Below, piece after piece: positions 33,017 through 54,200 of a DNA stretch of 64,000 bases. A model generated the notes under the pieces. That model made no database searches. It was not told where the DNA came from and worked only from the letters and a program-made list of their open reading frames with translations. The stretch comes from Mya arenaria (taxonomy: Eukaryota > Mollusca > Bivalvia > Myida > Myidae): NCBI RefSeq assembly GCF_026914265.1, contig NC_069134.1:16213205-16277204 (forward strand), given 5' to 3'. Each line of letters begins with the position of its first letter. The stretch's first letter is position 1. A program made the position numbers and the translations under genes.

Positions 33017-36000
33017 ATGTCAAGACATAGAAATGTTCGGTCTATGAACTACGATGAGGGTAAGTTTCATCTCGAATTTGTCTCACCTTTAATAATTACT
33101 GAGTTATTAACGTAAATTTATCCAGTTTTACTTATTAACTCCCTTGAAAATTAAGATGTTCAAACAGCCATTGTCATTTCATGAATTTTAGAAAAACAGA
33201 TGTGTTGTTACAAGATTGTCAGATTCATTTTATTTTGTTCCTATTCTTATCCAATAGTGATTAGTAAACGCAACAAACAGAGGAGTTAATTGATGAGTCA
33301 TTTTGGAGACAGGAAAAGATTAACAGTTGTACAGTAAAAATTACGGATGCTTACTAATTTGTTTTCAAATATGCATCTTTTTTATGTCTTATACATTTGA
33401 TTGCCAAATGAATCTTTTAATGTAGTAAACTATTTGCGATAGGGTCTTTTTAACCTTTTTTGTCCAGTATCCACTACCTGCAACAGACCCTGTTTTTCCC
33501 CCCATTTCCAGTGTAACCGAATTCATAATTATCGGTGGTATGCACACTGGTAGTCACATAAACAGAGTCAAGACAGGGAGGTTGGGAATGAAAAATAACT
33601 GAGCTGTGTTCATATTTTATACTATCTATTCAATATTCAAGTCATGTACATATCAGGTATACATGTATTTAATCAATTGGCTAATAATAACATAGCAATG
33701 TTTGCTATAGAAAATAATATTTGTATATATAATGCATGCGTCTCTGTTACCAGGGCTTCCATTTAGAATTTAAAACTGGCAATATTGGAAGTTTTCCTCT
33801 GAATTTTGGAACTTTGTACTTCTCAAACTTTTAAGAATTTTCCACTATATTACAACTAGTTAGATACATTAAATATTGAATAATTTGTAACTAAAACTTG
33901 AGAACTTCACAAAATTGTATCTTAAAAATCTGGTTTTCTACACATGTGTATTATTAAATAAACATTGTATAGCTGAATTTAAATATTAAATCTTATAAAT
34001 AACAAAGCTAAACAATTTTATAAGAAGCTCAGGTTTGTAATTATAGAACATTTTACTGTAAGAATTAATTTAAAAAAAAGCTATCTATTAAAAGTAAATA
34101 ATTCACAATTGATCCCCAATATAAGCGCATATCCCATAAAATATTTTAGAGCAAAATTAAATGAACATGATTTGCATATTATGTAAAAGCTAGCTGTTGA
34201 TAAAACCTTGTTTGCATCCCTAGTAAAAATTATTCTTCACTTACACAACGTTGTCTGCATTTTGCAGTTCTGAATATATTCTCTGATTTTGCAATGTGCA
34301 CATGGGTGAATACATGTAGTTACTAATATGTGGCACAGGATTGATGTGTGCATTATCTTACTGAGATATGTTATTGTTGTTTTTCAATGCATGTGAATTT
34401 TATATCGTAAATAAGATAATTTGTTATACACACTGGTGATGATAATTATTAAAAGAGCTTTGTCAAGCTTTCAATGTTAATTTTATTTTATTTATAAAAA
34501 ATAAATTTTTATTAAAGCATTATGTGTTTTTCCACTTCTTTGTTTTCAGAATATTATGATGAAGATGAAAGTTATGGCCATTCTGTAGAGGACAACTATT
34601 GTGTGTCTCCAGGAACAGGTAGAGATTATGAATGGTCTCTGTCAGAAAAGCAAACAGTTCTCTCAAGTTCAGCCATTTTTTTAACCCACAAGACTAACAA
34701 AAAAGTGAAATACTTCTAGTCAGCTTAATTAAACTTTTCATTGATAGCATGGTTTTAAGAGAGTCTGAGAATGGCATTTTCGCATCATATTCAGGCAGAT
34801 TACCGGTAATCTGGCATACATTTCATTAAGTACATGTAATATACTTAAATAAATTACAGTAATCTTCAATAATCTTTTATATCCTTTCTTTGACTATCTT
34901 TAAATCTTATTCTATAAGTGTTACCATCCATTATCTTAATTTTTTTCAGCTGCCCAGTTCACATTCAACAGAGAGAAAGATGTGGCCCTGTCACACTACA
35001 TGGATGAGCAGGGCGGGATTCCGGAAGAGGATGAGCCGGAGGAAGGGGAGGAAACTCTCCATGGCTCACATGACTACACACGCCCAACACTCTCCAGTAT
35101 TGATGAAGGTTGGATCTATTGAAATAATATGTGCTATAGTTAGAATTTAATGGCTTCTATTCTGCTGCATGTTTTATTAACCAGTTTTTTTTTTAAACAA
35201 AAGTCCTGGCTATTTTAGAATAAATCCTTGAAAATTTTAAAAGTTTAATTTTTTAGCTCGACTATTCGAAAAATAGGTGGGCTATACTACTCGCCCTAGC
35301 GTCAGCGTCGGCGTCCGGTTAAAGTTTTAGGGCAAGTTGGGATTTTCACTTATAAGTCCAATACCTTACATTCAATTGACTTTATACTTTACACAGTTGT
35401 TCAGGGCCATCACATGATGAGGTTAGATAACTCCATATTATTCTTTACACAGATTATGGCCCCTGATTGACCAAGGAACTTGGGTTAAAGTTTTAGGGCA
35501 AGTTGGAATATTTATTTTATTAATAACTTCTATATCCTTTGTTCAATTGACTTAATACTTCACACAGTTGTTCAGGACCATCCCACGATGAGGTTACATA
35601 ACCCCATATTATCCTAAATACAAGTTATGGCCCCTGATTGACTTAGGTTAAAGTTTTAGGGCAGGTTAAAGTTTTAGGACAAGTTGGGATTTTCACTTAA
35701 AACTCCAATACCATTCATTCAATTGACTTAATGCTTCACACAGATGTTCAGAGCCATCACATAATGAGGTTAGATAACTCCATATTATCTTTTATACAAA
35801 TTATGGCCCCTGATTGACTATGGAACTTTAACCTTAGGGCAGGTTGGGATATTGTTTAATAACTTCTATACCCTTCATTCAATTGACTTAATACTTCACA
35901 CAATTGTTCAGGACCATCACCCAATGAGGTTACATAACTCCATATCCTTAATACAAGTTAAGGCCCCTGATTGACTTAGGTTAAAGTTTTAGGCAAGTAA

Positions 36001-39000
36001 AAGTTAAGGGCAAGTAGGGATTTTAATAAAAAAAAACTAAACCGTTCTTTAAATGCACTTAATAAAATTCAAAATTATTTACGACCATCTTACAACAAGA
36101 AACATAACTCCGTTTTAAGCCTAAATACAAGTTATGGCCCTTGATTTTTTTTGATTTTTTTTTTCCCTTTGAAAGGCATATTTGTATATTCTTAACCACA
36201 TTTTCATAATGGGAAATCAAGTTATTTGAATGACTTGCGTCATTGTTTGAGCAGGCTGGTGGGAGGGCAGCATCAAAGTCACCTTATGTATCAAATAATT
36301 TTAGTTAGGTTTGACAGAAAGAGACCAAACTTGGTATTTTGGTATTATTACATGGTTATTGTATTCTAAGTCAAAGCGGCGTAGTCGAGCGCGCTGTCTT
36401 ACGACGGCTCTTGTTAAGTTAATATGTTCAATACCCATTTGTTTTTACACAACATTTCAGCGGCGTTTATTTTTATAGTCAGCTTACATTATTCGGGAAT
36501 TGTATCTTTCAGCGAGACTGAATTCGTGCCTGGAGGATGTTCGGAATGTTCTTGGGGAGTCTGTGCCCGATTCAATGATGGTCAGCACGATCATTCGCCA
36601 TAACTTCAGCATTGAATCATCTCTCAATGAACTTCTGAATAAACAAGGCATGATTTCTTAAATTTAAATTCATTTAGTTCTGTTTCACTTTTGATGAACT
36701 AATAAATGTAGATATATTTTGTTTATCCAAAGTGTTGCACTTTTCATGGAACTGAAAATCTATCAGGTTGTTAGTGAATAAAAAGTGTCTTCAAGTTCTT
36801 TAAAATAATGTGAAATCTGACTTGTAATCTGGTTAAGAATATTCACAACTACGGTACTGCATCCTTTTGGGTGCCTTTATGTCAAAGAAGCAGACATTGC
36901 TTGGGCTAATTTTGTGTCCACTGAGTCTTCAATCCCAGTGAAGAAACTTAGCTCAATTTGATCATTAAACTTTGCAGTTGAAGAAGCCCCAAAGCCACAA
37001 CGGGAGCCGAGACAAAACCGGAGAAACAGATCACAAGGTAGGAATGTCTTTTCTATGGAGAACATTGTGTAAAATAAGATATTAAATGATGTAGATGCTC
37101 CAGTTGACAATGGCATTTACAGCATACATTTTACATTGTAAATGTACACTGACAGTGTTAAACGAAAGTCTAAATAGAGACAATTGTTCTGTCAAGTTCA
37201 TATATCCAGTATTGGGAGCATTCTATTACAGACTATCGTATAGTTGTAAATAAGCTGGACATTTGCATTCAAAATAGTCGAGAGTAATCCGAAATAAATA
37301 AAAATGACTTTCGGAACAATTACAAATGCAGTTTAAGCCCCTTAACCCAGCTATGGTCTTTATCCTCTCATACGTTCATACTCGACTTAATTCTTAGGGA
37401 TCATCCCTGTATATCTTTAGCTTTTGTTTCATGTTTTCAAGTTCTTAAACTGAACTTAAAATAACTGTCATACTCATCAACCAAAATGAACATACATGTG
37501 TGCAGGGTTTCCTTGGTTAACAATGTGCCTTTCTTGTTTCTTTTCATATCCACACTTGCTGCCCGCTCCGATGATGAATGGTATCTTTGCTACAAAACAA
37601 TTGGTTTGTCTTTATGTTATATTATGCACTATGGCTCTATGTAAGGTAAGAACTAGATGATGACTTGTCAGACAATCTTGAGTCTCCCAGTCAGGATAGG
37701 GTGTTCTCTTACAGCCCTATAGTGTCTGGAGGAATCTTGAAATTTGGAAATAGTTTGTCTCCAAAATCTCCGTCGTTTGTTAAAAGTCGACTGGCTTACA
37801 AGAATGATAATATTTCAACTGAGTTTGATGAACAAAATACAGTTATGTTAGCAGCTGAAAATGTGAAGTTGAAAAATTTAGTGAAAAATGTAAAAAATCG
37901 AAACAAATCAGATACTAGAAATGATATTAACATTCAATCAAACAAAATTGACACATTAAAATCTCTGTCTGAAAAGACAACAGCAGCAAAAAGAGGTACA
38001 GCTCGAGGTAACATTACAGAAACAACTAATGATCAAAACTCCAGCCTATTGTCAAAACCATCAAATGCCTGCAAGAGCAACATTCCTTTTACTGCTTATC
38101 AGGAAGAAAATAATAACAAAACCTTACACAATGACATCTCAAATGCTTCACCATCTTTGTCAGACTTAGCCAAGTTGCATTCGACTTCACCACAAAGAGC
38201 TGCTATTCAGAGCAAGGGACTGTCACTAAATGACCTTGCTCAAGCTCATCAGAGAATGTCACCTGTTGCCCAGATAAGTGAATGTTCTGCTAAACCCTCA
38301 GAAGGTACACCATCAAAGCAAGCTTCATTAGAAGATTTGGCTAAAGCTCATCAAGGTAAAAAGTCTGTCTCACCAGATATAAAGCAAGCATTAGCTGTGC
38401 CCCAGCAAGCATCTTTGGCTGATTTGGCCAAATGTCATGGAGAAAAACATGCAGCAAGTCAATCTCCACTGTCACATCTGGCAAAACAGCACATTTCTGG
38501 AACAAAAGAAATCAAGTCACAAATTATTTCAGGAATTCAATCACGAAACCAATCACCAGCAAATCCCAATATTCCTGCTAGCTCTCAAGGACATTCAAAA
38601 TCGGCAGGGTCAACACCTCTGGGATTTTCATCTATCAAACCATCCATACCCCAAGGTGGATTATCTTTAACAGATCTCGCAAAAGCTCATGGTGTTGATA
38701 AGGGACCCTCAGGTGGTAAAACAAAAAGTGTAACCATTGACAGACAACCTCTGTCACACACTGGCTCACTGCTCTCAGGAGACATTTTCAAGAACAAATC
38801 AGACAAAGCTCAGATGATGCTGTCTTTGTCAAACCTTGTGCAAAAGCATGCAGCTAAAACAGAAGATAAACGTACAGGTGAAATTGTACTGACAAAACAA
38901 TCATCCAACAGAGGCAGCTTTGAACAAAAGATGTCCATTGATAAACTTGGAAGTCAAACTTCATCAGGATTATCATTAGCAGACTTGGTGAAGAATAAGC

Positions 39001-42000
39001 AGATGACCAGCAAGGCGAGTGTTGATCAAAATAAGAAAAGTCAAGAGAACAAATCAGAGAAAAATGTGGAACATGCTGAACAAACTGACAATGGAAATGT
39101 AGAAAACCTGAAAGATAAACATGGTGAAGCTGAGGACATACTTGAAGATATAAAAAATAAGCTCAATATTTTTGAAGAAAATAAGGTAGAATGTATCAAG
39201 CATATGATAGAAGGACCATCTCTGATTGGAAATACACTGTGTCTGCATTTTACGAAGATTAAGAAGTCCGGAACAAAAATTAGGTATAGAAAGAAACATT
39301 TCCAGTACAGTTACCAAGTCAGAGACAGCAAGGATAAATCTAATGTAACCTTGCATGAAATTAAAGCTTTTGATTTCTGTAAACCCTCACCTGATGAAAT
39401 TGTGAAAGAAAGGCAGAAAATGGCTTTCAGCAGAAATGGCGATAAAATGAAATAATTGACATTGTACTAGTTAACATGTTAAAGATCTTTTAAACTTCTA
39501 TTTAAGGAAATTTGCAAGTACATGTATGTTTTATTGCAGTGTGTTTTTTGGGGCCATATTTCGGCCCAATTCCCGACCTGAAAAAGTATATATTTTTCAC
39601 CTACCCTGGGTAAAAGATTTCCCTTTTTTGGAGGAGCTTTGACCTCTAAACATTGAGCAAATATAGCAATATAGTCCCATTTATGAACATGTTGATAGCT
39701 TTGTTGATTAAAAGGTTTGAAAAAAGTTATATAACATTATGTGAATCATATTAGTATCTTTCCCTTTTTGGCAAAAATGACGCTACTTTTCCTGTATCAA
39801 AGAGCCCCGCTGCTATTCCCTTAAATGCGTAAAAAAACACTGTACTGATGCATAAATTATGTTGTTTCCATGCTATGCAGGGGAGACATATTGTTTTTAG
39901 TGCGGATGTATATCCATCTGTCACACCCCTTGACAAATCTTTATGAAACTTGGTTCAAATAATGACCACATAGAATGATGTGTAGAACCCACGTTCCAAG
40001 GGTCAAGGTTAATGTTCAAAGTTCAGGGCTAAAGGTTTGTGTACCTGCTCTATTTCTCTTCAACTCCTCAAAGGATTTTTTTATGAAACTTAGGCAAAAT
40101 GTTAACACATTTATGCAGAACCATTGCTCCAAGCAAGCTGGCTCAATGTCAAGGTCACAGTTTAAGGTCAGAGGTTCTAGCCATAGAATTTGTGTATACT
40201 TTTATGTCTGCTGTATTTCTTGCATCCCTTGAAGGATATTCTGAAAATCAGGTCAAAAACTCACTACATCTACCGGTATTTGCTCTGTTTTGTTAACAAA
40301 CCTTTAATGATTTTCAAAACACTTGTGTCCAATGTTAACCTCATTGACACACCACCCACACTCCACACCATATCTCCCAACATCAAATGTAGTGGAACGG
40401 AATGAGGCAAGCTTTGAGGGAAATATCTTAATAGTTTCCAAAAACAACCATCTAGTAAAAAATATTGAAGCTTTACATTTGATAATTTTTTTGCCTTAAA
40501 TTTGCTCATATAATTCATGAAATCAAAATGTAATATTGAAATTAGGAATTGTAAATACTCATATTTTTGTACATGTTTTGTTTATAATGTAATCAGATAA
40601 ATGTGTCTTCATACATTTCCTATTCAGCCATGATTTGTGTCTGTTTACCTTAATTGTTTTGATCTCACACCTTAAATACAGCATGAATTGAATATTTGTA
40701 TGTTAATTATTCAATAAAACTGTGACGCAATCTGCAAAAGCTAGACCACAGCTAAAATGACATAACCTAAGAAGCCATGTTTTTTCAACATGCTGATTTT
40801 TTTAAGGGTGACAGTTGGTTTATTTTTACTTATATTTGTTACTTGACAGTGAAAATAAAAAAACGCTGTCGCTCTTGAAGAATCAGACTGATGAAAAAAA
40901 CGTGATTTTGTCACATACTATAAATTACACCTGTGGCCTTGTTTGCGCACATTGCATTACATAAGCTCTCTTACAATGTATTTATTCTTTTATGTAACTA
41001 GTAACTTATGTTTTGTAAATAAATGATAAGTGTAAATGATAGTTCTTCCTCTCTGATCACTCTCAACATAAGGGATTAATGTGTATTCAAGTGATGTGAA
41101 CTGTTGGATATTTCCAATTCCTTAAACAAATGAAAAAGTTGTCCTGTTAAAGATAAATATTACAATAAAGTTAAAAGGTAAGTTTGATTTTCACAAAAAT
41201 ACTGATGTTTTTGGTGTTAAATTTAAGAAATTATCTTAATCACAACTTTTGAATAATTTGTATTATTTGCTGTTAATATGATAACATTTTATGTGTTAAC
41301 TGTTGTTGTTGTTTTCATTTTTGTAGGGTTAAAGATTAAAAGTATCATGCATCTCACAATTGTTTTATCATTGTTTAGAAAGTACCTGTCTGTATTTAAG
41401 GATCATCAGACAACTCTGCTCCAGCAAAACCCCAGTTGGAGCTTGACTTCCCAACTGAGCCCCCTACTGTGATACTTAAAGAACCCAGAAAACCCCTCAC
41501 TTCTGTACCCCAACCTAAAATTATAGAACCTTACCTCTCACAGCCCACTGTGGTGAAATCAATGTCTCCACAACGGACACCAAAAGGGAAAAATAGGACT
41601 GCAGAGTTAGCTCCACTTGCAGCGAAAGCAAAAAATGATAATAAAGTTGCATTGACTAAAGATGCTAAAGCAGTATCAAGTGAAAGTAAAGATAAGAGAA
41701 CGGACACATTGGATGTTGAAAAGAGTGCTAGTTCTGAAAAAATTGAGAATAAGGATCAGCTTGCCACACCGAAGAAGGAGAGATTTATACCACCTCTGCC
41801 TAGGAGTTCCTCAAAGTAAGTAGGAATATTTTTGAACAAATTAATTGTGGATTGAATTTCAGGAGAATGAAAATATAGCATGGCTCTGGAATACCTACAT
41901 ACAAGTGTATGTATATGTTTTTTATGCTTTCTTAAAATTGCACCATCCATCCGGTTATCCGCATTCAGGCTATCACCGGGTATTAAAATTACTTGGCACA

Positions 42001-45000
42001 TGTTGACATGTGTTCAGTACATAGAATGACGAGTCGCTTTCAAGACCCACATTCTTACCTCAAAGGTCAAGGTCACACTTACAGGTTTATCATTATGGAA
42101 TGATGCTTATATGCATATACAGTATAGTTGGTTGTGTCCATGCTATATCTTTGTCATGCACAGAGGGATTTTAAAATTAATTGGCACATGTGTTTGGTAC
42201 AGAAAGACAGCATGTCACGAATAAGACCCACATTCCTACCTCAAAGTACAAGGTCAGACTTGCAGGTTTATTATGGAGTGAGCTTGTCGGTCGGTCTGTC
42301 TGTCGGTCGGTCGGTTTTCATGGTTTCCGGACAATAACTCATGAAAGGCTTGACAGATTTGAAAAAATTTTGGTACACAGGTGTAACATCAGTAGATACA
42401 GGTCAAGTTCGATATTGGGGCTGGTGGGGCCAAGGTCAAGGTCACTGTTACTAAAAATAGAAAAACGGTTTCCAGACGATAACTCATGAAACGCTTGACA
42501 GATTTGAACAATTTTTGGTACACAGATGTAACATCAGAAGATACAGGTCAAGTTCGATATTGGGGCTGGTGGGGCCAAGGTCAAGGTCACTGTTACTAAA
42601 AATAGAAAAACAGTTTCCGGACGATAACTCATGAAAGGCTAGACAGATTTGAACAATTTTTGGTACACAGGTGTAACATCAGAAGATACAGGTCAAGTTC
42701 GATATTTGGGCTGGTGGGGCCAAGGTCAAGGTCACTGTTACTAAAAATAGAAAAAACAGTTTCCGGACGATAACTCATGAAAGGCTAGTTTTTCTTGTCA
42801 GCAGTGTAACTTCTAAATTACTCAACAGATTTAAATAAAACAATACCTGCATGTCATGATAAAAGAAGATGCAGTGTGCAGTGACCTTGGAGTTATGGCC
42901 TCTTTTCAAAGGAATGGTTTTCCATTCCTGTGTCCAGGGGGCATTTGGGGGTATTCGTCATTCCTGTGACAGCTCTAGTTATTTTTGAATGCTGCTTATA
43001 TTCATATACTATATAGTTGGTCGTGTCCAGGCTGTAACTTTGTCATGCACAAAGGGATAAAAAATGGCACTTGTGTTTGGTACAGAAGATGATGTGTCAC
43101 GTGCAAGAACCATGACCCTACCTCAAAGTTCAAGTTTGGACTTGGAGTTTAATCATTATGGAATTCTGCATATATGCATTAAATTATAATACCGTAGGTC
43201 GTTTCTAGACTGTAACTTTGTCATGCAAAGACAGATTTTAAAATTACTTGGCACTTGTGTTGAGTACATAAAGACGATGCAAGACCAACATCCATGTCCC
43301 TACCTCTTACTGCATCACATCTCCACACTCGATGTTAGCCATCATGGGGGCCTGTTTCTGAATGTAGGTATATTAATAATTGTATAATTCATTGACACGG
43401 ATGGCACTTCGGGGGCATTCGTCAATTACTGTGACATCTCTTGTTTATTGTACATGTGATTGTGCATCCAAAAATAAATATTATTTTTTCCTCTTTTGAT
43501 TGTACAAACTTATCAAATTTAGTCATGAACCAATTCTTGTAGATGTAATGCATGATTCAACTTCTATGCCATTTTGCAGAAGCAAGTATGAGAAGTACGA
43601 TCTGAAGGAGGAGTACAAGAAACGCCAGGGCGGCAAGGACATGCTTAACATGGTCGTTATAGGTGAGGGGGATATCAAGGGTTTCTGTAATACCATTTTA
43701 TCCTGGTTGAAATGTTATCGTTAAAAAAAATATTGCCTTGAACTGGTTTTAGTTAACTTACAATGTATAATGTTGGTGTTCTATATATCTTCTCAGGTCA
43801 TGTGGATGCAGGCAAGAGTACATTAATGGGACATGTGCTGTACCAGTTGGGCTCAGTAAACCAGCGTGTAATGCACAAGTATGAACAGGAGTCTAAGAAG
43901 CTGGGCAAGTCCTCCTTCGCGTACGCCTGGGTTTTGGACGAGACAGAGGAGGAAAGGTAAGGGTTTTGCTCTCTAAATTTGGTAGTGCTAATTATAACAC
44001 ACATGGGGTTTATCTATTCAGCAAAGGTGTCCAAACACCTGTTATCACTGACATTTTTATACTTCAAAAAGTCACAACAGATTGGCATGACCGTGTGACT
44101 CTGCGGTAACTTCCTTCTCCGCATTATTAACTTACAGGCTGTTGCTTTTACACTGACTTGTATGTCCTTTAAAAGTATTTGATCATGTTAAAGATGTATA
44201 ATGAATTTAAAGCAATCAAAGAGAAGCTAGTACCCACATATAAACAAATGAATAAAATCCTTGCTAAACATTCTTGATATTCTGTTAAATCATTAAAAAA
44301 CAGTTTTACTCTGAATGTTTCTCTGTATACATTGACTCTGAAAGGTTTGCTGTATACTTTGACTCTGAAAGTTTTGCTGTATACATTGAATCTGAATGTT
44401 TCTTTGTATACATTGACTCTGAATGTTTCCCTGTATACATTTACTCTGAATGTTTATCTGTATACATTTACTCTGAATTTTTCTTTGTATACATTTAATC
44501 TAAATGTTTCTATGTATACTATACATCTATTTCCAGGGCCAGAGGGGTAACAATGGATATTGCTCAGACGAAGTTCGAAACTCCTCACAAGATCATCACC
44601 TTGCTGGATGCCCCTGGACACAAGGACTTTATACCCAATATGATCACAGGTATTCTCCATTTTATCTTCGAACATATTTAATCATACTTTGTCTTAATTG
44701 AATTCTGATATTAAATAGCAGATAGGAATGTACATAAAACAAATCTGTTTCTTCTATGTTCTTAATGCCAAAAAGTATACTTTTTCCTATTTTGAAAGCA
44801 ATCATTGATTATTCTCAATGAATATTTATGTCTCCCCCATTCATGGGGAGACACATATTGTTTTTGCCCTGTCCGTCAGTCAGTCCGTCTGTACGTCACA
44901 CTTCGTTTCCGCTCAATAACTATAGAACCCTTAGACTGAGGACGTTCATACTTGGTATGCTAGTTGGTCATGACTAGTAGATGACCCCTTAAGATTTTGA

Positions 45001-48000
45001 GATCACTAGGTCAAAGGTCAAGGTCGCTGTGACCTTGAGGTGAAGAAACGGTTTCTGCTCAATAACTAAAGATTTATTAGGTCCAGGAACTTCATACTTG
45101 GTATGCTAGTTGTTCATGACTAATAGATGACCCCTATTGATTTTGAGATCAAAAGGTCAAAGGTCAAGGTTACCTTCAGGTAAAAAACAAATATGTTGGC
45201 GGTGACCTGAAGCTTAAAAATGGTTTCTGCTCAATAACTAAAGAACACTTGTACCCAGGAATTTAATACTTGGTATGCTAGTTGGTCATGACTAGTAAAT
45301 GACTCCTATTGATTTTGAGATCAGTAGGTCAAAGGTCAAGGACACCGTGACCTTGAGGTGAAGAAAAGGTTTGCGCTCAATAACTAAAGCACCCAGGAAC
45401 TTCATATTTGGTATGGTAGTTGGTCATGACTAGTAGATGAACCCTATTGACTTTGAGGTCACTAAAATTTACTTCAGGTAAAAAACAATTTGTTGGTCAC
45501 CAGTCCGTACGTCACACTTCTTTCCGCTCAATAACTAATGAAAGCTTGGACCCAGGAACTTCATACTTGGACCCAGGAACTTCATACTTTGTATGCAGGT
45601 TGGTCAAGACCAGAAAATGATCCCTATGTTTGTTCGTCTCCAGTCCAAAACTACAAATTTCATGTCCATCATTGATTATTTCTCACCTACAACCACACAA
45701 TGGGGGAGACGAGCGCTTTTTCAAAAAAGCAATCTCTAGTTGAGATTTTTTTTTGTCTTACTGGCATTCAGCAAATCACATTAATTTATTTACTGATAAT
45801 TCCTAATTGGCAGCCATGAGTCATCTTTCAAAAATAGCCCTGTAGAGACCTCAATTCAGACTAAGGTTTAGTTGGTTTCAATATGAATTCAAATGTCATT
45901 GAAATTTCTTTTAAAAATGATGTTTAACATTGATATATACCAAATGGTACCCAAATAGGGAATTAAAAATTAAATGTTTCTAAATTCTATATCTACCATC
46001 CATTCAATTGTAAAACCCTTTTAACCAGGCACAGCTCAAGCAGATGTGGCCATACTTGTTGTGAATGCCACCAAGGGAGAGTTTGAAACGGGCTTTGAGT
46101 CTGGAGGGCAGACAAGGGAACATGCACTTCTTGCCAGGTCACTAGGTATGTGAGGTTTTTGTGTGTCTACTCATAAGTTTTGTTTTTTAGGTAGATAAAG
46201 CTGAGGGCTATTTCATTTAAACATATAACCCCTGGGGGGAAGGCACTTTTAAAATATACCACCCCCCTTCAAAAGCAAATTAATCCTTCTGGGGTCCAAA
46301 TTAGCAAAAAAGACACCCGCCCAAATACTATTTAAATAATTGCCTTCCCCCCTTGGGTTATATGTTTTACTGGAATAGCCCTGAGTCAAATTGAATTGTG
46401 TAAACATAAATTGTTTACCTTTTTTGATTTTTTGTGCATGGTTTGAATAAGGCTATTTTTTCTTTAATTTCATGTCAGAGGTCCGATTAGGTGGTAATTT
46501 CCAAGTTTCTTGATATTTTACAAACTTTATCACACAATTTTTAACATTTCAATTGTGGTATGATGCATCCAGGTGTCCATCAGCTGATAGTAGCAGTCAA
46601 CAAGATGGACACTGTGGGCTGGGACCCGGCCAGATACGATGACATTGTCCGGAAACTGGGTCTGTTCCTCAAGCAGGCTGGCTTTAGGGAGGGAGACACT
46701 AACTTTGTACCAGTCAGCGGGCTTGGTGGAGAAAATCTTGCAAAACCAATCAAAGAGCCCAAGCTAGCAGCATGGTACAAGGGTTTGAACCTGCTGGAGC
46801 AGATAGGTACATCGAGAGATTCACTGTATAGTATTTTTGTCATACTAGTAAATTGGTGATATAAGTAAAATGTATACTAGTACAGTTGATAGAAACAAAA
46901 AGCGAACTTATTTCTTTTCCATTTTTAGACACTCACTTGAAACAATCCTGTTTACAATATTTTACTATATTATATGTATTAATTTATATCTTGGGCACAG
47001 AAATATTCAAGCTTCATGTAAGAACACACCTACACTGTATTTATGCTGTTGGCGGCGATGGCCTTGTGGTTAGCATATCTGCTCTTTATCCGAGGGTCCA
47101 TGGTTTGATCCCAACATGGAGCTTCATCGAGGAGTAGTACTGGTTATCACCAGGGAAATAAGAAGTGGTTTTTAATCACATGTATTAAGCATATTTTACA
47201 ACTATACACTTGCTTGTAGCATTAAGCCGGCCCTTTTAGTTCACCTGTAAAAAAAATTATTTCCTTAATCTTCCAGACAAGTTCAAGCCAGTGCCACGTG
47301 CAGTTGATAGGCCGGTACGGATCATGGTGTCGGATGTGTTCAAGGGCCAACAGGGGTCAGGGCTTACTGCGGCGGGGAAAGTCGTCTCTGGCAGTGTACA
47401 GATAGGGGATAGGCTGGCAGTGATGCCTGCTGCCGAGTACTGTATTGTAAAAAGTAAGTAACATGTTATAGTTATTAATTGAGTGGATTTGTGAGTACAT
47501 GCTTCTCTAAACATATAGAATTGTGGGACCTTCGTTATTCTTTTGTTTGTTGAAATGTGAACCATAAACTGAGTTTGTAAATAGATTTCATTGCACAGAC
47601 AATGCTGTTTGGTAGCATGTTACTATTCTTTAGTTACCTTCCAATAAGTTTCATACATATCACAGTGTTTTACAAAAAAGAACACTATTTTACAGGTATA
47701 ACTAACAATGAGGAGGCAGTTAATTTTGCCTTTTCTGGTGACCATGTGATTGTGGGTGTGGCGGGGATTGACATTACCAACATCGTTGTAGGTGGGTACA
47801 CTGGAGATTGTTCTTACCATACCTTAGTATTGTACACCCTTATCATTGATTGAAGTTGGGAGTTTCTGATACATTCTAAAGTTAAATGATAACCTCACTC
47901 TGTGATTTTCTATATTAAGTCCTGTCATGTGCAAACACAGTACAATTAAAAAATATTTTTATCATGCAATCTTAGAACATATATATGCAAGTGGAAGTTG

Positions 48001-50318
48001 ATGTAATGAGTTGTGCCAGGTTTCTACGTACATAAATATATATGTACGGTATGTATCTACAGATCTACTTGTCAAGTCTTAAATTTTCCCATGCATGTTG
48101 ACTAGTTGGTCATGGGATTTTACAAACTGTCCCAGGATGTTCCCATACATGAGTGAGGATCATTTTCATGCCTGGTCAATTATACTTCCAGGAAGTGTGT
48201 TTTGCGATGTCCAGACTCCTGTAGTGTGTGCCAGCCGTATCCTTGCACGAATAGTGCTCTTCAACCTAGAAATTCCCATGACCCGGGGATTTACTGTGAG
48301 TTCAATATCTACATTTTAAACTTTCTGAGTATGAAATGAAAACTGCAATGTGTTCAGTAGGGCCAGCGTTTACCTAACATAAGCAAACTGTTTTGTTTTG
48401 TATCTCTTTTTGCAACTCAGCGCATACACTGCGAGTGGGGAACCAAACAGCATAAAAAGTCTACGCAAGCACATTTACTGAATAAATGTCTGGTTATTTA
48501 AAAAAAAAATGACATAAAATCTAAAAAGACAGTAAATATCAGTGTTGAATCATGCTGTATTTTCAATGAAAGTAGTTAAATGTTAATAAAGGAAGTTTTC
48601 AGTTAATTTTTTTTTTCAAATTGAGCAATGCGGACAAAAAATCCCATCACAATGTCTATATAGTTAAATGGCACTTAAACAATATAGCCCTTCAATATAG
48701 CACTACAATAAGGATGGCTCAAACAGTAGATTGTTTTTTTGAAATCACAAAATAAACAACATTATTTTTGTATTTATACTGACAATACATGGAACTATTT
48801 CTCTATTACCATACTTATTCCAATTTACAATCACCAATTTACAGAAATCTCATTTCCAGGTGATATTCCATTACCAGACTGTGACAGAGCCGGCAATTGT
48901 GAAAAAACTTGTCTCACACCTCAACAAGAGTACTGGAGAGGTCATCAAAAATAAACCCAAGTATGCATTCTATTACAGGCATATCACTTATATATTAGCA
49001 AAGGTTGCTTGTATCATGGCATGCGATCAATAATGACATTGTCAAGTTTGTTAGATATGATGACCAGCAAATTTGACCCTAGGACACACTTGAAGCCTGT
49101 AACTTGGCAACCTCGTTTTTGACATCAGTCTTTACCCTAGGTCCATACAAAAAGCTGTTCTTTAACTTAAAGTGTCTTTAAGCATAAGTTTGTTCTAAAG
49201 ATATGATGCCATTCTACAAACCAGTACTTAATTTGTTTCCTCTTTTAATTTTCAACCATACAATTCCATTCAGATATTATAAAAAGCCTGGTAATTATGA
49301 GTGTCTGATTATGGTGTCTTTGTAGTGAAAGTAGGAGAACGTTTATAAGGTTGCAAATTACATGAACTGGTATCTGCAATGTGCATACATTGTGCCCTGT
49401 TTCTCTCCAGGTGTTTGATGAAAAACTCTAGCGCTGTTGTGGAAATAGAGTTTGAGTTCCCGCTGTGTGTGGAGCTGTACAAGGACAACAAGGAGATGGG
49501 GCGGTTCATGTTGAGGTCCGGGGGCCACACCATCGCCGCAGGGCTCATTGAAGAGGTGAGAGGGTTAAAGGTGGCTATTCATGTTGAGATCATGACATAC
49601 CATCATAGCAGGGCTCATTGAAGATCCGGTGGGAGGGGGGGGGGGTAGAGTAAATGGGGGTGTTTCATGTTAAGATCTTGAGGGACACAGCATCATCTCA
49701 TTGACGAGTCTAAGTGGTAAATGGGTCTGTTTGTGTTAAGATCTGCTGGGGTTAATTAAATTCCTAATGTTAAGGCTTATAAAAGAAAGAATTCAATGGG
49801 AAGATAAGTACAACAAAAATACATGTAGGTTTCGATGGGCTCACTATTGATGTAAGGCTTATGTAAGAGTTGTTATTTGTAGTTGGTGCATTGGGAAAAT
49901 ATTTTTGTAATCAAACAAAAAGGTAATAACCTTTGTGGAAAAAATGGTATAAAACAGACAACAATAATATTAGTCATGTTTTTATTAGTGATCCAAGAAT
50001 AGGCCAATATCACGGGGTGCTCTGGTGTTAATGTCATCCAAATTTTATAATTTTGTGATTTCATAAATTGAACATATATATCGTGAAATGTGTTCTAATA
50101 CAAGACTCAATAGTTGAAAAATTACAAATGAAAAAAATATTGACATATTGACTTTTGACATTCAGAGTATTATTATATGCGAATTGTTAATGTGTATTTT
50201 GCATCAAGTTTTTCATGTGTACATATATGTTTTGTTTCAGGTATTGAAAACAAAGGCTGGTGAGGGAGTGAAGAAAGGTGGTGAAGGGGCAGAGTCTCAA
50301 GGAGCGATGGGAAACTGA
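33017..50318 (+). CDS. HBS1L: HBS1-like translational GTPase (long isoform)
   Basis: Partner of Pelota; eRF3/EF-1alpha-like GTPase that rescues stalled ribosomes in no-go and non-stop decay. Exons: 33017-33059, 34550-34618, 34950-35108, 36513-36647, 36978-37037, 41401-41815, 43580-43662, 43797-43956, 44537-44649, 46029-46145, 46573-46806, 47277-47453, 47696-47791, 48192-48295, 48860-48960, 49411-49555 and 50241-50318; phases all match, 762 residues (human 684). The N terminus [14 protein letters not shown] and [15 protein letters not shown] match the HBS1 N-terminal domain. The GTPase motifs are complete: GHVDAGKST (about residue 322), RGVTMD, DAPGH, NKMD and VSGLGGEN. The beta-barrel domains end [12 protein letters not shown]. 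The exon at 41401 is a long low-complexity linker. The intron after exon 4 starts with GC. AATAAA is at 50386. Confidence 0.97.
35256..36417. repeat. Dispersed repeat with ~165-bp internal tandem units (HBS1L intron 3)
   Basis: It starts AGCTCGACTATTCGAAAAAT, then GCGTCAGCGTCGGCGTCC, followed by four to five degenerate units each with GTTAAAGTTTTAGGGCAAG, TTCAATTGACTTAATAC, CCATCA..ATGAGGTTA and TTATGGCCCCTGATTGA. It ends with a small hairpin (GCTGTC TTAC GACGGC) followed by TCTTGTT. The same kind of 3' end (GACAGCTCTTGTT-like) closes the repeats at about 42985 and 43448, so they may share a family or mechanism. Confidence 0.7.
36648..36649 (+). other. HBS1L: Non-canonical GC splice donor, HBS1L intron 4
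   Basis: Exon 4 ends CTGAATAAACAAG and is followed by GCATGA. Reading on meets an in-frame TGA at once, no GT in the next bases keeps a usable frame, and the next exon (36978) needs exactly this phase. The intron is therefore GC-AG, a minor but known class in animals. Confidence 0.75.
37651..39455 (+). CDS. HBS1L (SKI7-like): Alternative terminal exon of HBS1L, probable SKI7-like isoform
   Basis: One uninterrupted frame of 601 codons with stop TAA. It starts in the right phase after exon 5 (acceptor GTAAG|AACTAG at 37650), giving a 756-residue product with 155 shared N-terminal residues and no GTPase domain. In vertebrates a short HBS1L splice form with its own 3' exon links the cytoplasmic exosome to the SKI complex (the SKI7 role); position, size and exon class match. 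The unique part is hydrophilic and Ser/Lys-rich, with eight copies of an LSLxDLAKxH motif (near 38151, 38219, 38325, 38406, 38466, 38658, 38817 and 38970). A more ordered C-terminal segment follows ([46 protein letters not shown]). The acceptor has almost no pyrimidine tract, fitting regulated use. The function is inference. Confidence 0.8.
39880..40400. repeat. Dispersed repeat downstream of the SKI7-like exon
   Basis: It begins near GGGGAGACATATTGTTTTTAG and contains two to three degenerate units with TTTATGAAACTTGG/TTAGG, a description-like CATAGAATGATG block and AAGGTCA half-sites. The opening GGGGAGACATATTG is shared with the repeat at 44831. It would lie in the 3' UTR of the short isoform. 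Confidence 0.55.
40713..40718 (+). terminator. Candidate polyadenylation signal for the SKI7-like isoform
   Basis: AATAAA about 1.26 kb after the stop of the 37651-39455 exon and before the next HBS1L exon. A second AATAAA lies at 41164-41169. Either could end the short transcript; which is used is unknown. Confidence 0.4.
41925..43450. repeat. Composite dispersed repeat with two tandem unit types (HBS1L intron 6)
   Basis: The first type (about 150 bp, around 41930, 42130, 42990 and 43180) carries CTTTGTCATGCACA, TGGCACATGTGTT and CTACCTCAAAG. The second type, about 145 bp, occurs roughly three times from 42322 to 42780, each with GTTTCCGGACGATAACTCAT, GGTACACAGGTGTAACATCA and CCAAGGTCAAGGTCACTG. 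GGGGGCATT(C/T)..GTCA..CTGTGACA(G/T)CTCT ends appear twice, near 42985 and 43448, so two related elements sit in tandem or nested. Confidence 0.7.
44303..44525 (+). repeat. 27-bp tandem repeat abutting HBS1L exon 9
   Basis: About eight copies of a 27-bp unit (TGTATACATTGACTCTGAATG plus TTTCTC) end roughly 10 bp before the acceptor TTTCCAG at 44536. The T-rich plus strand may supply branch point and pyrimidine tract, so the array sits where it can influence splicing of the exon that encodes the DAPGH motif. Confidence 0.85.
44831..45742. repeat. Dispersed repeat with GGGGGAGAC inverted ends (HBS1L intron 9)
   Basis: The left end carries TGTCTCCCCCATTCATGGGGAGACA, itself a hairpin; the right end has CAATGGGGGAGACGAGCGC then CTTTTTCAAAAAAG. 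Inside are about five degenerate units of about 165 bp with CTCAATAACTAAAG, GGAACTTCATACTTGGTATG, TGGTCATGACTAGTAGATGA and AGGTCAAAGGTCAAGGTC. This is the 'TCTCCCCCA' type of repeat common in bivalve introns. Exact termini are not certain. Confidence 0.65.
46202..46384. mobile_element. 177-bp MITE in HBS1L intron 10
   Basis: The element spans 46205-46381. Inverted ends of about 43 bp: left GGGCTATTTCATTTAAACAT then ATAACCCC; right, reversed, GGGCTATTCCAGTAAAACAT then ATAACCC. Both lead into GGGGGGAAGGCA. A TGA triplet flanks both ends (46202-46204, 46382-46384), a possible 3-bp target duplication. It is nearly all inverted repeat, so RNA from it would fold into a long hairpin. Superfamily not assigned. 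Confidence 0.82.
47047..47200 (+). mobile_element. tRNA-derived SINE in HBS1L intron 11
   Basis: GATGGCCTTGTGGTTAGC is an A-box-like segment with one mismatch, and GGTTTGATCCC is a full B box about 45 bp later. The region between looks like a tRNA body (TCTGCTCTTTATCC). The sequence after it (GGAGTAGTACTGGTTATCAC..) is a non-tRNA SINE body; the right end is not sharp. It is a different family from the SINE at 29636. Confidence 0.75.
49500..49755 (+). repeat. Degenerate tandem copies of HBS1L exon 16 end
   Basis: The last part of exon 16 (TTCATGTTGAGGTCCGG .. GCAGGGCTCATTGAAGAG|GTGAGA) is followed in the intron by a clear second copy at about 49576-49625 (TTCATGTTGAGATCATG .. GCAGGGCTCATTGAAGA), and weaker third and fourth copies at about 49660-49710 and 49728-49750 (TTCATGTTAAGATCTTG; TGTTAAGATCTG). 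The unit is about 70 bp. In the copies the donor GTGAGA is lost (the second reads AGATCCGGTGGG). Confidence 0.8.
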
Positions 50319-50391: not shown

Positions 50392-51214
50392 TTGAGAAAT
50401 ATTGTTGGTGTTTGTGAATTTACTTCAAAGACAAACAGAAGTATTGCCTAGTATGTCAATCTAGACCCAGAACAGTTTCTACAAAATCTGCTTGTTATTT
50501 TAGAGACATGTGCTGGACGAGACTGTTCCTGTTATAAAAAGTATATGAAATGTTGTGATATAGAGATGTGTAGCATGTTAGTATGAAATATCTATGATAT
50601 TGTTTGAACAGATGTTTGAGTTATACAGAAGGAAGGAAAGCACACACTGGAAAATACATTCAGATCATCACTTCAAACAGACCACTCAGAGCAGAGTATT
50701 TTATGAACTTGGTTATTGATTTACTTGAATGGGTTGATTCTTTATTGAGACATGACATACTTCATGCAGAGATAGAGTTATAATTAATATAAAGCCACTA
50801 TAGTTCATGAATTACAAATCAAAGAAACTTTACTACAGTTGCTATCTTTCCCTTAGAATAAATTTGTCAAATTTGTAAGAGATGAACTATTACCTACACA
50901 TAATACTAGGAAAAGGTGTTAAATTGTGCCAAGTTATATTTAAATTCTTAAAGCATTTGTGACCTTTCGAGACATTGACCTTGAACAGACGTGGCAAAGA
51001 GTTGTCCAGTTGTCAAATTAACTTGTTATATGACCCTGGTGATTGATTCACTATTTATTCTGTGACTAACATTCACTGATAATCAACTTGTTTACTATAT
51101 ATATGAAAGGAACATAATTCTCATACAGGTTGGCATTTCTAGTTTTAAGAATCAGTTGTTTGTAACCTACATATTGGCAATCCTTACAAATGAAATTATT
51201 TTACGTCAAACAAA
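50392..51214 (+). other. Short intergenic region between HBS1L and PDCD2
   Basis: AT-rich, no exon seen. It should carry the PDCD2 promoter; no named element is supportable. Confidence 0.45.
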
Positions 51215-54200
51215 ATGGCAGCGCCCACTGTTGACAAACATGTTGAACTAGGTTTTGTAGAAGAAACAGATAAATTTCTGCTTAAAAGCAGATTCTTTCC
51301 AAGTAAAGTTGGAGGTAGACCGGCCTGGTTGTCTTTGAAATCATTGCCAACTCCAGAAGAGCTTTCATGCAGCTTGTGTTCCAAACTAATGAAATTTTTG
51401 ATGCAAATTTATTCACCTGATCCTTCAAAAGAGTCCTGCTTTCACAGAACTATTTTCATCTTTGTTTGTGACAATACGAACTGTTGCAAATCAAATTGTG
51501 CAGGTCATTTAGTTGTATTTCGGTCACAGTTACAACAAATCAATGAATTCTACAGTTCCAAACCACCAGTTGAGGCCAGAGTAGACAAGGAAATAGATGC
51601 CTCACTTCACAATAAGTTATGTAGGGTGTGTGGATGCTTAGGGCCCAAGACATGCGGAAAATGCCACAAAGTTAGCTACTGCAGTAAAGAGCATCAGGCA
51701 GTTGATTGGAAAGAAAATCACAAACAAGAATGTTCTTCAGATTCAGCAGGTATCTTTCTGTTGATATTTACAAATATTGCCTCCATTGATCATGATGAAC
51801 ATGTAAATTTCCTACTTTCATCAACAAATGATAAAAGAATCTCTGACATTAATATCAAATTATACTGTGGTAAGGATCATGCACTTTTATGTCCCTGAAT
51901 TCAACTTTTAAACGGTTGCGTTCAATCTAAAGTATTCGGCTTTTGACAAATTATTTTGTAGTCAATTTCCGAATTTGCTGTAACAGAAAGCTCAGGAAAA
52001 CATATAATCATTGGTTGCTAAAAAATGAATGAATATTAATGAGAAAAACATTAAAACCTGTTTGAGAACCAACAATTCTATCTTAATCACATGACTGGTC
52101 AGGTGACCGGCATCATGAAATAACAGTTAACTGTTAACAATTTTCATGACCAGATAAATATCGTAAATACTCTAATGATCACACATGTCGGAATATTCAT
52201 AGTCATGAAATATAATTTCTCTAAAAGTAAGCCTAACTTAATAATATTAAAGATTAATATAAACATGATTTTAGGTTGATTTTAAAAAGCATACTATATT
52301 ATATTACATCAGTATCTTTCAATGCATCCTATCAATGGTATCAAGTTTATTTTATTGTTTTGCCTGATTTCTATCTATGCTAGCATTCTATACACAATAT
52401 AACTTGGTAGGTGACTTTTAAAGAGTTTTAAACCATACTGGTTATGCACCAGTCAATTGTAACCACGGCCCACCCAGGTCCGGGGAATAGCGGGGACTTC
52501 GGTCCAGCCAGCCCTGGGTGAAATCTCCGCCCTGCGGGAACGAACTGATGGAAAAATCCCCGCCAAATTCCCCCGCACGCCAGGGATGCGAGGTAAGGCC
52601 CATTCCCCGCTATATTTTGCGTAAAGACAAAACCACCGTATTCACCTGGCACTGCAGGGCCACCTGAAAGGTAAAAACACGGCCCATTTCCCCGTCTATC
52701 CCCGATATACCCCTGGACCTGGGGGGCCGTGGTTACAATTGACTGGTGCATTAGGGACCCCATTTCTGGACGGAAATGGAGGTTTTTCTTGAATAATTCA
52801 AGAAATACTCAATATTTTTGGATTAAATTTCACTTTTCAGAGCAAAGTTAAGCCCAAGATCTAAAAAGTAAATTATCTGTATAATATATTATGATGAATG
52901 GTTATTTTGAAAATGAGTTCATGTGCCAAACATACTCATTAAAATCCACTGACATAACAGTGTACTGAACCAGTAATTTGCCCTCTTTAAGAAAATTTAT
53001 ATTATCATAAAAAATCTAAAAATTGCTGTTTATAAGAGAATTTTGCTTGTGAACAAATGTTGAAAAAGTATGGTGCACCCTAGTGCAAATTTATAATTGC
53101 TGATAAATTGCTTCTTTTCAGTGTTTTACTATTACTATTTTGAAGCCTCATTTTAACAAAATATCATTTGCTTGAAAAAGAATCAAAACGGAATTGCTAA
53201 ACAAGGGCTTAACAGGGTGGCGAATAACTAATAGGGTAAAATTAAAAGCAAGAATTATGTGGAAAAAAGATGTTAAGTTTTGTAAAATAACACAATCAAT
53301 AAATAACACCACCTTATTATATGATGTTGTACTAATTCAATATCAGACAAACATTTGCTGCAGCAAAACAGAATACTAAGATTGTAGTGAGAGAACTTCA
53401 GCTATCAGTTATATTGGTGTGGACCAATCTGTTAAAAACATCTAAAACTTATGATGACATTTATGGTAAAGACCAGAACATATTACTATAAAGCATGCAA
53501 TGTTCATGATTATTGTCAAGTTACACGGACAAAGTTCTCGAAAGTTTTTAAGCATAACAAGCTTACATGTGTACATAGCTTATTTTTTACTTAGTCTTTA
53601 ATTTTCTAAATAAAAAAACTGTTTATCATTATTAAAATAAAGATAATTTCCTTTTAAAGCTTTACCCTCACAGATTGAACGTTTTGACAACTTTTTAAAT
53701 TTTTTGTCTTGAAACAAGCAAATTTTTGGGTAAATATCTGCAAACCAGTAATAAAAGACTGCTGACAAAAGATCTGGTCACAGCTTTTCATAAAAGTCAA
53801 AAAAATAAAAAAAGTTGGAAAAACAGCAAATCTGTGAGAGTGCAGCTTTAAGGTCCCAAACAAAGAATGTAAACATCACACAAATTCAACCATCACAAAA
53901 ATAGTGAGCTTAGCTTACTCATGTTACAACATACTTGAGAAGTCTCGAGAAATTAGTGTCAGATCAGTTGCAGTACATTAAATGCAGGTTTAAAAAATTT
54001 ACTTTCAGATGTTGCCAGTGAAAAGAACTACAACTGCCTTTTCCCAGAGTTTGAGCTTGTGACTGAGACAGAAAATGTTCCTACAAAAGGTACAAAGGAG
54101 AAAAATGATGCAACAAAAATGAAGGAGTATGAAGAATTCCTTAAGTCTGCAAAAGGGTCTGATGCAGGAGAAAGTCTACCAGATTCCGAATTACAAAGCA

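What the first reader, a model, noticed from the sequence alone, without database searches (positions are those of the whole stretch)
37651..39455. A SKI7-type alternative terminal exon inside HBS1L
Between HBS1L exons 5 and 6 lies one 601-codon open frame that starts in the correct splice phase, has its own stop and is followed by polyadenylation signals. Using it would give the HBS1 N-terminal domain fused to a GTPase-free tail, the architecture of the vertebrate short HBS1L isoform known to join exosome and SKI complex. Seeing it in a probable mollusc would mean that this one-gene, two-protein arrangement is old in animals.
Basis: partly seen in the sequence, partly recalled or inferred. 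Interest (0 to 1): 0.75.

Follow-up and report, generated by a model that had tools for sequence, protein, structure and literature searches.

The report
Clam HBS1L gene's SKI7 exon
A clam-like genome carries, inside its HBS1L ribosome-rescue gene, a spare last exon that would turn the product into SKI7, the bridge to the RNA-degrading exosome; this one-gene-two-proteins arrangement is already known in animals, but the clam version shows a striking repeated motif that may be a docking site.

Summary
37651-39455 is one 601-codon frame between the shared HBS1 N-terminal exons and the GTPase exons of HBS1L, in the right phase, with its own stop and AATAAA signals from 40713. The SKI7 reading is supported by sequence: 96 aligned columns near the C terminus match human SKI7 (HBS1L isoform 3, PDB 9g8m chain E) at E=1.2e-9, 36 of 96 identical. 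The genome gave one match for this tail and one for HBS1_N, so no second SKI7 gene was found. Splicing is not shown: no RNA data were available, and the proposed acceptors (37651, 37657) score poorly, though coding signal reaches them. The age of the arrangement is not news: SKI7-like proteins were reported in mollusks, brachiopods and cnidarians in 2018. What my searches did not find in print is an array of eight SLxDLAxxH-type motifs in the tail. Human SKI7 residues 373-546 hold five similar motifs, and the fifth is the helix (Leu454, Ile458) that docks on SKI3. I infer that the tail is a multi-copy SKI3-docking region; binding by the clam copies is untested. New member of a known kind, moderate to low interest.

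The parts
33017..33059 (+). HBS1L exon 1 coding part (MSRHRNV...), phase 1 donor
   Evidence: 11 of 14 residues identical to the human start
34550..34618 (+). HBS1L exon 2, shared
34950..35108 (+). HBS1L exon 3, shared
   Evidence: splice sites and phase
36513..36647 (+). HBS1L exon 4, shared, HBS1_N (UBA-like) domain; GC donor
   Evidence: (PF08938, 33.4 bits, cut-off 26.4)
36978..37037 (+). HBS1L exon 5, last shared exon, phase 1 GT donor
37651..39455 (+). SKI7-type alternative terminal exon, coding part (acceptor at 37651 or 37657, less likely 37723)
38154..38999 (+). Array of eight SLxDLAxxH-type motifs, starting at 38154, 38223, 38325, 38412, 38466, 38664, 38823, 38973
39150..39437 (+). 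Putative exosome-binding region: SKI7-like segment ([10 protein letters not shown]) and Patch 4-like motif ([21 protein letters not shown])
   Evidence: E=1.2e-9 to human SKI7; 36 of 96 columns identical
40713..41169 (+). AATAAA signals at 40713, 40854, 41018, 41164 (candidate 3' ends of the short isoform)
41401..41815 (+). HBS1L exon 6, used instead in the long GTPase isoform, same phase at its start
   Evidence: acceptor AAG, donor GTAAGT
43515..49561 (+). HBS1L GTPase and C-terminal domain exons (ten tblastn blocks, exact borders not worked out)

Best explanation
The frame is the SKI7-specific alternative last exon of HBS1L. Splicing exon 5 to exon 6 gives HBS1L, the GTPase that works with Pelota. 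Splicing exon 5 to 37651/37657 and ending at one of the AATAAA sites gives a GTPase-free protein of about 755 residues: the shared acidic and UBA-like N terminus, a long, probably disordered tail with eight SLxDLAxxH-type motifs, and a C-terminal exosome-binding stretch. It would bridge the SKI2/3/8 helicase to the exosome: the C-terminal stretch on RRP43/MTR3 and CSL4, and one or more SLxxL helices (best candidates copies 7 and 8) on SKI3. Shown: the frame, phase, gene context, sequence match to human SKI7, the motif array and its likeness to the human SKI3-docking helix. Inferred: the splicing, the 3' end and all binding.
For: Human SKI7 match E=1.2e-9, 1.3e-10 with the C-terminal 212 residues alone. 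Same place in the gene as the human and zebrafish SKI7 exons. The frame opens right after a stop at 37647-37649 and its first Met is codon 66, so the first part needs an upstream exon; chance of 66 open codons 0.023. One genomic match for the tail and one for HBS1_N. Eight motif copies against 0.24 expected, 0 of 20,000 shuffles. A matrix from the five human copies ranks exactly these eight as the best of 590 positions on the clam tail, sum reached by 0 of 2,000 shuffles; a matrix from the clam copies ranks the five human copies first in residues 373-546, sum reached by 0 of 5,000 letter shuffles. The human copy at 452-460 holds Leu454 and Ile458, which bind SKI3 (PMC11540850). Between clam copies, 94 of 152 pairs of identical residues use different codons, against 92.6 expected if silent sites were fully random, so the copies are not recent duplicates. 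Ski2_N is present in the genome.
Against: No transcript evidence. Weak acceptors at 37651/37657. The SKI7-like segment lacks the Arg and Phe of human RxxxFxxxL (Gly and Ile instead). Clam motif queries alone did not pull human SKI7 from the solved structures at E<=10. The human SKI3-docking copy is the weakest of the five by the clam matrix (4.93 bits). In human the L454D/I458D mutant was used to validate docking although the other copies remain, and a second predicted helix made no substantial contribution, so extra copies may add little. A poor single-sequence model makes only copy 7 of the eight helical. Family searches meant to mark SKI3 (TPR_22, from recall) and CSL4 (EXOSC1) found nothing in the genome, and Pelota only a weak piece; exons are searched one by one, so this says little.
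Confidence: 0.9

Rival explanations
1. The frame belongs to an internal cassette exon, ending at an internal donor, giving a SKI7-like protein that keeps the GTPase domain, as in plants.
For: Donor-like GT sites in the right phase lie inside the frame, the best at 38878 (score 3.0 on a rough matrix). Plant SKI7 keeps the GTPase.
Against: A donor before about 39150 would remove the end that matches human SKI7, and the frame has its own stop followed by AATAAA signals.
Confidence: 0.05
2. A separate intronic gene with its own promoter, not spliced to HBS1L exons.
For: Weak acceptors at the start of the frame; a Met at codon 66 could start a 536-residue protein.
Against: Coding signal before that Met (15.9 for 63 codons; intron 99th percentile 11.9, maximum of 4,000 draws 19.6); phase agreement with exon 5; the same gene arrangement in human and zebrafish.
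Confidence: 0.04
3. The SLxDLAxxH array does not bind SKI3 but some other partner, or merely spaces the ends. This concerns the array only and is compatible with the main reading.
For: No binding data; the SKI3-docking human copy is the weakest of the five by the clam matrix (4.93 bits); six of the eight clam copies have Ala where human has Ile458.
Against: The one human copy with known function sits in the same kind of array and has the same hydrophobic positions.
Confidence: 0.35

Closest known systems
Human SKI7 (HBS1L isoform 3, HBS1LV3; PDB 9g8m and 9g8r, where the label reads isoform 2)
   Same: Alternative exon 5 followed by termination; shared N terminus; no GTPase; C-terminal exosome-binding stretch with Patch 4; SLxxL motifs upstream of it
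   Different: Clam tail longer (601 against 488 residues); eight near-regular motifs, seven ending in His, against five degenerate ones in human 373-546 (human 145-372 was not seen); SKI7-like segment lacks the human Arg and Phe
Zebrafish ski7 (exon 5 of hbs1l), PMC7924785 (passages)
   Different: Sequence not compared here; 576 residues in all according to the paper
Invertebrate SKI7-like proteins (cnidarians, echinoderms, cephalochordates, mollusks, brachiopods, priapulids), PMC6143672 (passages)
   Same: Same family and probably the same isoform
   Different: Evolution of gene and transcript structure in animals was left open in that paper; its sequences were not seen here
Yeast Ski7 and plant SKI7
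   Same: SKI7 proteins with a Patch 4-like motif
   Different: Keep a GTPase-like C terminus; the yeast protein docks on Ski3 by other elements (PMC11540850)

Membership tests
Animal SKI7 (HBS1L short isoform) | Shares the HBS1 N-terminal exons with HBS1L | tested here: met
   Exons in order and in phase, HBS1_N over cut-off; the joining is predicted, not seen in RNA
Animal SKI7 (HBS1L short isoform) | Alternative last exon with own stop between shared and GTPase exons | tested here: met
   DNA layout
Animal SKI7 (HBS1L short isoform) | Patch 4-like motif (metazoan consensus IaPF[D/R]F[K/D][S/T]aSPDDIV+A) | tested here: met
   [23 protein letters not shown] aligned to human ITPFDFKSASPDDIVKANQKKAF, 14 of 23 identical; the Pro of PF is Ala and the second Asp is Glu here
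Animal SKI7 (HBS1L short isoform) | SKI7-like motif (A+PShFAahL; human RxxxFxxxL) | tested here: inconclusive
   [10 protein letters not shown] aligns without gap to human ARPSAFASTL, 4 of 10 identical, but Arg and Phe are Gly and Ile. PMC6143672 says RxxxFxxxL is not conserved in all eukaryotes; PMC7924785 calls the motif weak in Drosophila and yeast
Animal SKI7 (HBS1L short isoform) | No GTPase domain in the isoform | tested here: met
   No Pfam family in the tail at E<=1
Animal SKI7 (HBS1L short isoform) | SKI3-docking SLxxL helix upstream of the exosome-binding part | tested here: inconclusive
   Sequence motif present in eight copies; helix and binding not shown
Animal SKI7 (HBS1L short isoform) | Isoform is transcribed and spliced | not testable with these tools
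   No RNA reads available
Animal SKI7 (HBS1L short isoform) | Binds exosome and SKI complex | not testable with these tools
   Needs pull-down

The most novel reading that the evidence does not exclude
The long insert of animal SKI7, described in 2018 as of unknown function, is an ancient array of SKI3-docking motifs. The clam keeps eight near-regular copies, so one SKI7 could hold SKI3 with high avidity or bind several SKI complexes, for example on collided ribosomes; vertebrates keep a decayed array in which one copy does most of the work.
Probability: 0.4. Interest if true: 0.5.

Novelty: new member of a known kind. Interest (0 to 1): 0.33.

Why it matters
It gives a genomic layout, in one probable mollusc, for a point left open in 2018: how the HBS1/SKI7 gene structure evolved in animals. 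The layout is the vertebrate one. The motif array gives a testable idea of what the long SKI7 insert does: multi-copy docking on SKI3.

Tried and rejected
Pfam gave nothing for the tail at E<=1. Searches of solved structures with the clam repeats alone found no SKI7 at E<=10; the weak hits there (a bacterial Tir fragment at E 0.011 to 0.1, a designed pore at 0.024, a TAL effector and an aldehyde oxidase above 0.5) are taken as chance. Family searches of the genome for TPR_22 (recalled as a mark of SKI3) and EXOSC1 found nothing, and Pelota only a piece below the family's cut-off with a stop inside; these say little because exons are searched apart. A DSHCT helicase about 220 kb upstream of the window looked like a possible SKI2, but its best matches are MTR4; the Ski2_N match lies on contig C17, where the other DSHCT matches are. 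A single-sequence AlphaFold2 model of the tail was too poor for fold searching (mean pLDDT 42.8); its helices are at 61-87, 289-292, 387-401 (motif copy 7), 481-521 and 581-598 (Patch 4 end), and the other seven motif copies are not helical in it. Reading on from exon 5 without splicing was rejected: a stop comes after 11 residues.

The core of the motif has pN/pS 0.33 against 1.06 for the next nine codons. I do not lean on this ratio, because the core was chosen for likeness and silent sites are saturated; the random synonymous codons are the safer result.

The 2018 PNAS paper on SKI7 splicing, the 2017 paper on HBS1LV3 and two exosome-SKI structure papers (Mol. Cell 2016 and 2023) are not held. 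I recall that the PNAS paper describes alternative splicing of this gene in many eukaryotes but did not read it; it may already show mollusc transcripts.

Not-in-print claims rest on searches of an open-licence library only; most of the listed papers were seen as listings, and papers found there such as PMC8860381 and PMC13271354 were not opened.
Full report
What was checked. The window lies on contig C13 of a 1.216-Gb genome in 18 contigs. [quoted passage not shown] passages of PMC10663159) plus one further contig, but I did not prove the species.

Gene context. The P-loop exon has an Hbs1l chain as its best solved match (5lzw_jj, E=3.2e-25). Five shared exons (33017-33059, 34550-34618, 34950-35108, 36513-36647, 36978-37037) each leave phase 1; exon 4 has a GC donor. 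They encode 155 residues, including the HBS1_N domain. The human shared part is 144 residues (PMC11540850, passages).

The frame. 37650-39455 is open for 601 codons, the longest run in the window; the next is 239. Simulated windows gave at most 196 (60 simulations). It begins right after a stop at 37647-37649, and the first Met is codon 66, so an upstream exon is needed for the first part. Joined to exon 5 at 37651, 37657 or 37723, the product is 756, 754 or 732 residues with one final stop; exon 6 (41401) takes the same phase, so exon 5 can join either. Without splicing, exon 5 runs into a stop after 11 residues. The acceptors at 37651 and 37657 are weak on a rough matrix that I wrote from general knowledge; 37723 scores better. 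Yet codon usage from 37656 to 37844 looks coding in this frame only: 15.9 for 63 codons, against -11.5 and -14.0 in the other two frames, and its first 22 codons, before 37722, score 7.6 against an intron 95th percentile of 3.8 and 99th of 7.8. A weak acceptor is what one may expect of a regulated exon, but it could also mean that the true site is 37723.

Homology. Against the solved structures, the only strong match is human SKI7 (9g8m chain E, labelled isoform 2 of HBS1-like protein; the paper calls it HBS1L isoform 3), E=1.2e-9 over frame residues 501-596, 36 of 96 columns identical. [quoted passage not shown] The SKI7-like segment is kept in place, but Arg and Phe of the human RxxxFxxxL are Gly and Ile. 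[quoted passage not shown] In human, residues 602-616 bind CSL4 and the helix from 617 reaches SKI2 (PMC11540850); the Patch 4 stretch in this region has 14 of 23 residues identical.

The motif array. The tail has eight copies of a nine-residue motif, SLxDLAKxH by majority, at frame residues 169, 192, 226, 255, 273, 339, 392 and 442. The pattern [SPT]LxxL[AVILCF] occurs 8 times against 0.24 expected, in 0 of 20,000 shuffles. Human residues 373-546 have it 5 times against 0.22 expected, in 0 of 20,000 shuffles. A matrix made from the clam copies alone ranks the five human copies first in that segment; the sum of the best five was reached by 0 of 5,000 letter shuffles, 0 of 5,000 two-block and 1 of 5,000 three-block shuffles. 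In the whole human stretch 373-632 one other site (615-626, in Patch 4) ranks second. A matrix from the five human copies ranks the eight clam copies as the best eight of 590 positions; their sum was reached by 0 of 2,000 shuffles. The fifth human copy, LSLSELIAE at 452-460, belongs to the helix whose Leu454 and Ile458 bind between TPRs 29 and 30 of SKI3 (section read); the letters L454 and I458 were checked. It is the weakest of the five by the clam matrix (4.93 bits). Clam copies 7 and 8 carry Val where human has Ile458, the other six Ala, and copy 7 is the best match to the human matrix, so 7 and 8 are the best candidates for SKI3 docking.

Results against this. Searching solved structures with the clam repeats alone did not find SKI7 at E<=10. 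An invented query with Ile at the key position returned the two human SKI7 chains as its only matches, but at E=0.17 and 0.46. In the poor single-sequence model only copy 7 is helical. The structure paper reports one main docking helix in human and a second predicted one of no substantial effect.

Age and selection. Of 152 pairs of identical residues among the eight copies, 94 use different codons; full randomisation predicts 92.6 (95% range 76-106). The copies are therefore not recent duplicates; the protein motif has been held, or reached repeatedly, while silent sites were scrambled. The exon-6 region of the long isoform has 0 copies in 139 residues.

One gene or two. The tail matches the genome once, at this place, and HBS1_N once. 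The search is exon by exon and scores only the best candidates, so a diverged second copy is unlikely but not excluded. SKI2 seems present (Ski2_N; DSHCT on the same contig). SKI3, CSL4 and Pelota were not settled.

What is known. [quoted passage not shown] Zebrafish: ski7-specific exon 5, with Lingula and coral found by PSI-BLAST (PMC7924785, passages). Mollusks and other invertebrates: SKI7-like proteins found in RefSeq, with the evolution of gene structure left open (PMC6143672). The same paper calls the long human insert one of unknown function. I found no paper that describes the insert as an array of SKI3-docking motifs (searches; seen as listings, apart from the passages named).

Verdict. 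A SKI7-type alternative terminal exon of HBS1L, supported by sequence, not shown in RNA. New member of a known kind. The array is the part worth following up.

Noticed in passing
5477-18026: A 12.5-kb minisatellite of about 340 copies of a 35-base unit, followed by a second array (26 bases, 65 copies, 18213-19950).
   Followed up: no
23407-24065: 36-base minisatellite, 18 copies, open in several frames.
   Followed up: no
36513-36647: HBS1L exon 4 seems to use a GC donor (AAG|GCATGA); by eye no GT lies between it and the in-frame stop.
   Followed up: partly
51212-51715: Frame with a MYND finger (Pfam, E=4.7e-7), by eye and from recall PDCD2-like, just downstream of HBS1L.
   Followed up: partly
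59423-59818 (- strand): Frame matching the phosphorylase superfamily PNP_UDP_1 (E=5.1e-10).
   Followed up: no
G000:C13:15991886-15995114 (L006, L007): A likely MTR4, the nuclear exosome helicase, lies about 220 kb upstream of the window on the same contig.
   Followed up: partly
35331-36032 and 42323-42786: Tandem repeats (171 and 145 bases) within HBS1L introns.
   Followed up: no
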